This document shows, one piece after another, positions 33,606-34,053 of a DNA stretch of 34,804 nucleotides. The position numbers were made by a program, and so were the translations under genes. The stretch comes from Candidatus Omnitrophota bacterium. GTDB lineage: Bacteria > Omnitrophota > JACPQZ01. The notes under the pieces are model-generated. The model made no database searches. It was not told the origin of the DNA and worked only from the letters and a program-made list of their open reading frames with translations. The stretch lies in contig JACPQZ010000042.1 of the NCBI GenBank assembly GCA_016190205.1, forward strand, positions 1-34,804, written 5' to 3'. Position 1 is the first letter of the stretch, and every line of letters starts with the position of its first letter.

Positions 33606-33633
33606 GGTGTGTGGTGAGTGATGTGTGGTGAGG
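33606..33633 (+). repeat. Left heptad repeat arm of the four-helix-bundle element
   Basis: GGTGTGT GGTGAGT GATGTGT GGTGAGG, four 7-mers of form GRTGWGK; 33614-33632 is inverted-complementary to 34022-34040. Confidence 0.88.
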
Positions 33634-33651
33634 TTGGGAGACGAGGGCTTA

Positions 33652-34053
33652 ATGAAAGTTAAAAGCTATAAAGAATTAGAAGTTTGGAAAAAGGGAATAG
33701 AAATAGTGAACATGGTTTACGCGATAGCGAATAGCTTCCCGGACGGTGAGAAGTACGTCCTAGCCGCACAGATGCAGCGAAGCGCTCTGTCGATCCCCTC
33801 CAATATTGCTGAAGGATTTGTTCGTCAATATACTAAAGAGTACAAGCAGTTCCTATACATCGCGCGGGGGTCTTGCGCGGAACTTGAAACTCAAAGGATC
33901 GTTGCCATGCGGCGCAGTTTTGCACCACATGCTGATCTTGAGGAGTTAGGATCACATCTGGAGCACGAAAGCCGTATGCTGATGCGTCTTATTCAGAGGT
34001 TAAATGACCGCGCACTCATCACTCATCACACAGCACTCACGACTGACGCGTAA
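33652..34053 (+). CDS. Four-helix-bundle protein (23S rRNA IVS / S23 / Avd-like family)
   Basis: YKELEVWKKGIEIVNMVYAIANSFPDGEKYVLAAQMQRSALSIPSNIAEGFVRQYTKEYKQFLYIARGSCAELETQ is diagnostic. ATG 33652; track ORF uses GTG 33625. Confidence 0.95.
   Translation: MKVKSYKELEVWKKGIEIVNMVYAIANSFPDGEKYVLAAQMQRSALSIPSNIAEGFVRQYTKEYKQFLYIARGSCAELETQRIVAMRRSFAPHADLEELGSHLEHESRMLMRLIQRLNDRALITHHTALTTDA
34014..34048 (+). repeat. Right heptad repeat arm of the four-helix-bundle element
   Basis: ACTCATC ACTCATC ACACAGC ACTCACG ACTGACG, five contiguous 7-mers; encodes the C-terminal tail ALITHHTALTTD. Confidence 0.88.

What the first reader, a model, noticed from the sequence alone, without database searches (positions are those of the whole stretch)
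33606..34048. Four-helix-bundle gene bracketed by heptad-phased inverted repeats: a free-standing IVS-like element inserted in a hem operon
Seen directly: left arm GGTGTGT GGTGAGT GATGTGT GGTGAGG and right arm ACTCATC ACTCATC ACACAGC ACTCACG ACTGACG are both phased at 7 nt. 33614-33632 and 34022-34040 match 17/19 as inverted repeats, and one mismatch would be a G-U pair in RNA, so a transcript could close a hairpin with the ORF in the loop. The right arm also encodes the C-terminus of the protein. Established: this family is encoded in 23S rRNA intervening sequences, which are hairpins carrying the ORF in the loop, and is related to Avd of diversity-generating retroelements. Inference: this is a mobile or formerly mobile unit outside rRNA whose protein acts on its own repeat-hairpin, and it separates hemD from hemB in an otherwise compact operon.
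Basis: partly seen in the sequence, partly recalled or inferred. Interest (0 to 1): 0.88.

Follow-up and report, generated by a model that had tools for sequence, protein, structure and literature searches.

The report
Selfish gene between matching seven-letter repeats
A small gene of unknown function sits inside a heme-synthesis operon, held between mirror-image runs of a seven-letter DNA repeat; the same gene-plus-repeat unit occurs across many bacterial phyla, and matching gene-less repeat hairpins scattered through the same genomes suggest an overlooked class of mobile element that would explain long-puzzling seven-letter repeats in bacteria.

Summary
In detail: 7-nt-phased inverted arms bracket the PF05635 four-helix-bundle gene (inverted score reached by 0 of 2000 shuffles). 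It is not a local oddity. Of 78 PF05635 genes in the phylum, about 80% have 7/14-nt-phased flanks, and arms match their own partner far better than other loci's. The pattern recurs across many phyla. Arm motifs co-vary with the protein, so arms travel with the gene. In relatives hemD and hemB usually abut or overlap. In Rhodanobacter the accB-accC spacer is 14-27 nt in 11 species, but holds a 460-nt gene-bearing element in three and a gene-less hairpin in one. Dispersed gene-less heptad arrays carry the motif of the resident gene's arms; this genome has them too. Best reading: a free-standing IVS-type element plus non-autonomous hairpins, working like REPIN-RAYT but without a known transposase. 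How it copies itself is unknown. Arm mismatches show no G-U excess, so RNA-level selection on the hairpin is unsupported. It likely explains the GGGAATC-type heptamers of Xanthomonas.

The parts
33606..33633 (+). left arm: heptads GGTGTGT GGTGAGT GATGTGT GGTGAGG, beginning about 5 nt after the hemD stop codon (33598-33600)
   Evidence: own-genome matches to the same motif
33652..34053 (+). four-helix-bundle (PF05635 / TIGR02436, S23p/IVP) gene, 133 aa from ATG; an upstream GTG at 33625 would give 142 aa
   Evidence: AlphaFold2 pLDDT 94.9; closest solved fold 2GSC XCC0516
34013..34047 (+). right arm: heptads ACTCATC ACTCATC ACACAGC ACTCACG ACTGACG, in frame in the C-terminal codons of the gene
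   Evidence: the end CACTCACGAC recurs in gene-less hairpins L337, L338, L340
31969..33600 (+). upstream host gene: uroporphyrinogen methylase-hemD fusion
   Evidence: PF00590 and PF02602
34075..34804 (+). downstream host gene hemB (contig ends inside it)
   Evidence: PF00490
7680..7755 (+). gene-less heptad hairpin in the same window: TCGTATC TCGTATC TCGTGAA GCGTATC ... GATTCAC x3 GAACGAC; same CGTATCT/CGTGAAG motif as arms of PF05635 elements in Sedimentisphaerales (L087) and Nitrospirae (L088)
   Evidence: folds to -30.3 kcal/mol; motif family dispersed in own genome

Best explanation
It is a free-standing element of the 23S-rRNA IVS kind, the gene-bearing member of a two-part repeat system. 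Anatomy (shown): a four-helix-bundle gene sits between inverted arms made of about 4-6 tandem 7-mers (8-mers in some lineages). The motif is private to the element lineage, of one type on both arms, and inherited with the gene. The unit sits a few nt after one stop codon and shortly before the next start codon of a host operon, usually in the operon's direction. Gene-less arrays and array pairs with the same motif are dispersed in the same genome. Mechanism (inferred): the gene is expressed by read-through of the host operon; its product, expected to be a pentamer like XCC0516, recognises its own heptad arms in DNA or RNA and supports, in trans, copying of arrays and hairpins into new intergenic sites. 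The catalytic step is done by an enzyme not identified here. The element is tolerated because it lies between reading frames and, as in rRNA IVSs, its transcript hairpin can be cut by RNase III. The two arms are kept alike by a homogenising, copy-type process, not by selection for RNA pairing.
For: Phase: best lag 7 or 14 in 60/77 upstream and 65/78 downstream flanks of PF05635 genes in the phylum against 28/145 distal control segments. Inverted arms: own-locus median 17.25 vs 8.5 between loci; 14.5 vs 8.0 in named genomes and plasmids of many phyla. Arms co-vary with protein: Mantel p=0.002; mean arm similarity 4.9 to 16.2 as protein similarity rises, flat in the opposite orientation. Insertion: hemD-hemB gap of 11 nt or less, or overlap, in most relatives vs 474 nt here; Rhodanobacter accB-accC 14-27 nt empty in 11, 459-465 nt with gene in 3, 122 nt gene-less in 1. 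Trans relation: GGGAYTC matches 249/37/17/12 in the four Rhodanobacter with a gene of matching arms, 0-11 in the other 11; the T or C variant matches the gene's arms. Own genome: CGT heptads 422 vs 59 control, with families matching the arms of the C13 and C21 genes; the window's motif has five gene-less convergent pairs. Concerted arms: 34/34 concordant in Xanthomonadales. Position and direction: 63 same/same vs 6 opposite/opposite; stop-to-arm median 3 nt. Protein under purifying selection, dN/dS 0.04-0.20. IVS kinship.
Against: No transposition event was caught; all comparisons are between species. The protein has no recognised catalytic domain and no enzyme partner was found. Full gene copies seem to move rarely: in Xanthomonadales 33 of 34 checked sit at accB-accC. 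Interiors of gene-less pairs differ, and one pair in G070 brackets native argE DNA, so single arrays may be the moving unit. No clear target-site duplication was seen. About 20-30% of PF05635 genes lack recognisable arms. G.U mismatches are not in excess.
Confidence: 0.6

Rival explanations
1. Domesticated regulatory network: the four-helix-bundle protein is a nucleic-acid-binding regulator that autoregulates its own mRNA, and the dispersed heptad hairpins are its binding sites at operon junctions; spread is ancient and now maintained for the host.
For: Vertical single-site inheritance at accB-accC across Xanthomonadales; strong purifying selection on the protein; arrays placed within a few nt of stop and start codons; published arrays are transcribed and mostly sit between the same genes in two Xanthomonas species (PMC4692102).
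Against: Patchy presence among congeners with clean empty sites; several different motifs in the same genome; neighbouring genes are functionally unrelated; an array also occurs inside a coding region.
Confidence: 0.25
2. Slippage: heptad arrays arise by polymerase slippage and template switching, and PF05635 genes merely tend to land in or next to such hairpins.
For: Slippage was proposed for heptamers in the literature (PMC4692102, PMC4679880); long arrays of about ten units exist.
Against: Does not predict arm-protein co-variation, dispersed arrays mainly where a matching gene is present, the convergent order of pairs, or a gene between the arms in most cases.
Confidence: 0.07
3. Accessory protein of another mobile system: an unlinked reverse transcriptase or Y1 (RAYT/IS200-like) transposase does the copying, and the Avd-like protein is its nucleic-acid-binding cofactor.
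For: The fold matches Avd of diversity-generating retroelements and the DGR reverse transcriptase complex; REPIN-RAYT shows the same layout of gene plus dispersed doublets (PMC3116915); one Nostoc lineage carries the gene beside an ISL3-type transposase.
Against: No such enzyme lies inside the elements inspected, and small genomes carry several elements; co-occurrence across genomes was not tested.
Confidence: 0.3
4. Pure RNA device: the arms are kept to form an RNA hairpin cut by RNase III, exactly as in rRNA IVSs, with no DNA role.
For: The sense fold closes on the arms; elements are co-directional with operons; the Coxiella IVS is cut by RNase III in the stem (PMC4990558).
Against: Mismatches between arms show no G.U excess over A.C (89 vs 109, p=0.18), and within-arm 7-nt periodicity is not needed for a hairpin.
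Confidence: 0.15

Closest known systems
23S rRNA intervening sequences (IVS) with S23p ORF, e.g. Coxiella burnetii IVS (PMC4990558)
   Same: Same protein family; about 430 nt; ORF in the loop between terminal inverted repeats; tandem heptamers (GACAGAT x3 + GACAGAA) just before the ORF and a 28-bp stem in the published case.
   Different: Here it lies between protein genes of an operon, not in rRNA; gene-less relatives are dispersed in the same genome; RNase III excision not tested.
REPIN-RAYT systems (PMC3116915)
   Same: One gene flanked by the repeat; dispersed inverted doublets of the same repeat type; a different repeat type per gene; singlets also occur; largely vertical gene.
   Different: RAYT is a Y1 tyrosine transposase; here the gene is a four-helix bundle with no known catalysis. 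Repeats are tandem 7-mers, not REP palindromes.
Avd of diversity-generating retroelements
   Same: Same fold (4DWL and DGR complex matched).
   Different: Avd model cut-off not reached (21.6 vs 80 bits).
Heptamer repeats of Xanthomonas (GGGAATC) and Nostoc (PMC4692102), TAACTGA repeats of Beggiatoaceae (PMC4679880), heptamers of Geobacter (PMC2700814)
   Same: Tandem 7-mers, in Xanthomonas most often four units, intergenic, often as convergent pairs; close relatives of XCC0516 have GGGAATC arms.
   Different: Those reports did not connect the repeats with this gene and left function or origin open; only the Xanthomonadales link was tested here.
MITEs and insertion sequences
   Same: Terminal inverted repeats; non-autonomous derivatives.
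   Different: No transposase, no clear target-site duplication, tandem-array ends.

Membership tests
rRNA IVS (S23p/IVP) elements | encodes a PF05635 protein | tested here: met
   115.6 bits vs cut-off 33.8
rRNA IVS (S23p/IVP) elements | ORF between terminal inverted repeats able to form a stem | tested here: met
rRNA IVS (S23p/IVP) elements | located inside a 23S rRNA gene | tested here: not met
   between hemD and hemB; no Rfam match in the window
rRNA IVS (S23p/IVP) elements | excised from the transcript by RNase III | not testable with these tools
   needs RNA-end mapping
DGR accessory protein Avd | reaches the curated Avd model cut-off | tested here: not met
   NF033474 21.6 bits vs cut-off 80
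DGR accessory protein Avd | Avd fold | tested here: met
   4DWL, probability 1.00, TM 0.70/0.83
DGR accessory protein Avd | neighbouring reverse transcriptase with template and variable repeats | not tested
   the window was not scanned for them
REPIN-RAYT | resident gene flanked by the same repeat that is dispersed as inverted doublets | tested here: met
   own genome; Rhodanobacter
REPIN-RAYT | gene is a Y1 tyrosine transposase | tested here: not met
   only PF05635 found; four-helix fold
Insertion sequence / MITE | transposase gene | tested here: not met
   no other gene inside the element
Insertion sequence / MITE | target-site duplication | tested here: inconclusive
   none evident at accB-accC empty versus occupied sites, but flanks differ between species

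The most novel reading that the evidence does not exclude
A pan-bacterial (and partly archaeal) class of mobile element, of which rRNA IVSs are the only recognised members: a pentameric four-helix-bundle protein that recognises tandem heptads, perhaps one per subunit, and drives the spread of heptad arrays by a transposase-independent, array-copying process, making it the source of most tandem heptamer repeats in prokaryotes.
Probability: 0.35. Interest if true: 0.95.

Novelty: new variant of a known kind. Interest (0 to 1): 0.86.

Why it matters
S23p/IVP proteins have had a structure since 2006 and no function, rRNA IVSs have been suspected since 1990 of being transposition remnants, and abundant tandem heptamers in bacteria have been described without an origin. 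This ties the three together and makes them testable: the gene predicts the repeat and the repeat predicts the gene. If the system copies DNA without a known transposase, it is a new way for sequences to spread in genomes.

Tried and rejected
First profile search too diverse; repeated with ten closer proteins. Phages: no match. RNA-only reading: tested by G.U vs A.C mismatch counts, twice, no excess. Chance: rejected by shuffles, distal segments and cross-locus pairing. Element as one indivisible unit: weakened, since arrays in G070 bracket native argE. Two Nostoc plasmids with a near-identical element in diverged flanks looked like mobility, but the high identity continues into the right flank, so recombination is as likely. 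The PF05635 gene on contig C16 of this genome has no arms. Literature searches for a known link between heptamers and this gene family found only the Coxiella remark; only open-access papers are searchable and no preprints.

Full report
The observation. The window ends in the hem operon: a uroporphyrinogen methylase-hemD fusion (31969-33600), an ORF of 133 aa (33652-34053) and hemB (from 34075). The ORF is PF05635 (23S_rRNA_IVP) at 115.6 bits and TIGR02436 four helix bundle. None of 2000 dinucleotide shuffles reached the inverted score. The right array is also the C-terminal coding sequence.

Not a local oddity. This genome has five PF05635 matches. The three other strong ones have the same architecture with different heptads: CGTACAG / ACGCAGT on contig C13, CGTGCTT / AGCACGA on C21, ATACCAG / CTGGTAT on C24; the weakest (C16) has none. 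Of 59 genomes of the phylum, 38 have the family. In 78 such genes the best autocorrelation lag between 4 and 15 is 7 or 14 in 60 of 77 upstream and 65 of 78 downstream flanks, against 28 of 145 distal segments. Arms pair with their own partner (median score 17.25), not with arms of other loci in the same or other genomes (8.5). Candidatus Omnitrophota among the best protein and DNA hits suggests that phylum for the host.

Across phyla. Eighty named loci and seven plasmid loci from Bacteroidota, Firmicutes, Cyanobacteria, Planctomycetota, Nitrospirota, Gemmatimonadota, Lentisphaerota, Proteobacteria, CPR lineages and Methanophagales archaea show the same: 60 of 85 exceed the 95th percentile of cross-locus pairs. 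The period is 7 in most and 8 in a minority. Among 100 elements with clear arms, arm similarity follows protein similarity (Mantel p=0.002; mean 4.9 rising to 16.2), only in the same orientation. Arms therefore travel with the gene and have polarity; closely similar pairs occur between phyla, for example an own-phylum element and a Sedimentisphaerales one.

Insertion. In relatives where hemD is found next to hemB, the two mostly abut within 11 nt or overlap; here they are 474 nt apart. One relative (L167) has a gene-less heptad hairpin at that same junction. Exact empty sites come from Rhodanobacter: the accB-accC spacer is 14-27 nt in 11 genomes, 459-465 nt with a PF05635 gene and GGGATTC arms in three, and 122 nt with a gene-less GGGACTC hairpin in one. 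Elsewhere the gene sits at carA-carB (G070) and between sufA-like and sufB (Riemerella); from reading the flanks, also at gmk-nadD and sdhA-sdhB in Flavobacteriia. Over 89 elements with readable neighbours, 63 lie between two genes co-directional with the element and 6 between two opposed ones; the left arm starts a median 3 nt after the stop codon and the right arm ends a median 22 nt before a possible start.

Gene-less copies match the resident gene. In 15 Rhodanobacter genomes, GGGAYTC array matches number 249, 37, 17 and 12 in the four genomes whose PF05635 gene has GGGAYTC arms, and 0 (nine genomes), 6 and 11 in the rest; all four exceed all eleven (chance 1 in 1365). G070, whose gene has GGGACTC arms, has almost only GGGACTC arrays in the part listed; the others, with GGGATTC arms, have GGGATTC. 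The pairs listed for G070 are all convergent, as the gene's arms are. In this genome CGT-heptad arrays give 422 matches against 59 for the reversed control, with families matching the arms of the C13 and C21 genes, and the window's own motif has five gene-less convergent pairs on contigs C4, C8, C23 and C59; those folded form hairpins, and several share the end CACTCACGAC with the window's right arm. The window itself holds a gene-less hairpin at 7680-7755. One G070 pair brackets 420 nt of native argE, with the right array in frame in the coding sequence, so single arrays may also insert.

Arms evolve together. In Xanthomonadales, 33 of 34 genes checked sit at accB-accC, and the variable base of the heptad (GGGAATC, GGGATTC, GGGACTC) agrees between left and right arm in 34 of 34 (a few genomes enter that list twice). 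Pairing at RNA level does not explain it: arm mismatches that would be G.U in the transcript (89) are not commoner than those that would be A.C (109). The protein is under purifying selection (dN/dS 0.04-0.20), so it does something.

The protein. AlphaFold2 gives a confident four-helix bundle (pLDDT 94.9). The closest solved folds are XCC0516 of Xanthomonas campestris (2GSC; a pentamer according to the literature cited), 2RLD, and Avd with the DGR reverse transcriptase complex. Close relatives of XCC0516 (84-88% identity) are flanked by GGGAATC heptads, the repeat reported without explanation in that species (PMC4692102). X. campestris itself was not among the genomes drawn.

Literature. The 23S IVS of Coxiella has an S23p ORF, a 28-bp terminal stem cut by RNase III, and tandem heptamers GACAGAT just before the ORF (PMC4990558). 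So the heptad arm seems to be a mark of the whole family, and the element here is its free-standing form. REPIN-RAYT (PMC3116915) is the closest working analogue. No paper found connects dispersed heptamers with this gene family; the search covers open-access papers only.

Verdict. Shown: a widespread unit of gene plus inverted heptad arms, inserted at operon junctions, with arms inherited with the gene and dispersed gene-less arrays of matching motif. Inferred: mobility in the present, action of the protein on the heptads, RNase III excision. Unknown: the enzyme that copies or joins DNA. About a quarter of PF05635 genes lack clear arms.

Noticed in passing
window 7680-7755: Gene-less heptad hairpin between two genes, just upstream of an HflK-like gene (start near 7774); same CGTATCT/CGTGAAG motif as PF05635 element arms in other phyla.
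   Followed up: partly
L167 (G052), hemD-hemB spacer: A 159-nt spacer holds a gene-less heptad hairpin (AGGCTTC/GAAGCTT type): independent occupation of the same junction as in the window.
   Followed up: no
L258 (G070), argE: A GGGACTC array lies in frame inside argE, adding several codons; other Rhodanobacter species (L279, L288) have unrelated insertions at the same codon position.
   Followed up: partly
L080, L380 (Nostoc plasmids): A PF05635 gene sits directly downstream of an ISL3/IS204-type transposase in Nostoc PCC 7120 pCC7120gamma and HK-01; the same protein accession recurs on pCC7120alpha (L379) without that transposase upstream.
   Followed up: partly
L103, L124 (Clostridia): Arms continue inward from the heptads into a conserved inverted sequence GGGCGGGACACCCGCACCCGAT, and L103 carries a partial second copy of the element.
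   Followed up: no
L054 (G009), L071, L073, L082 and others: Some lineages use 8-nt (or mixed 7+8, or 9-nt) units instead of 7, still matched between arms.
   Followed up: no
L093, L118, L125 (Flavobacterium, gmk-nadD junction): Conserved PF05635 gene at the same junction with decayed or missing arms but strong purifying selection, as if retained without mobility.
   Followed up: partly
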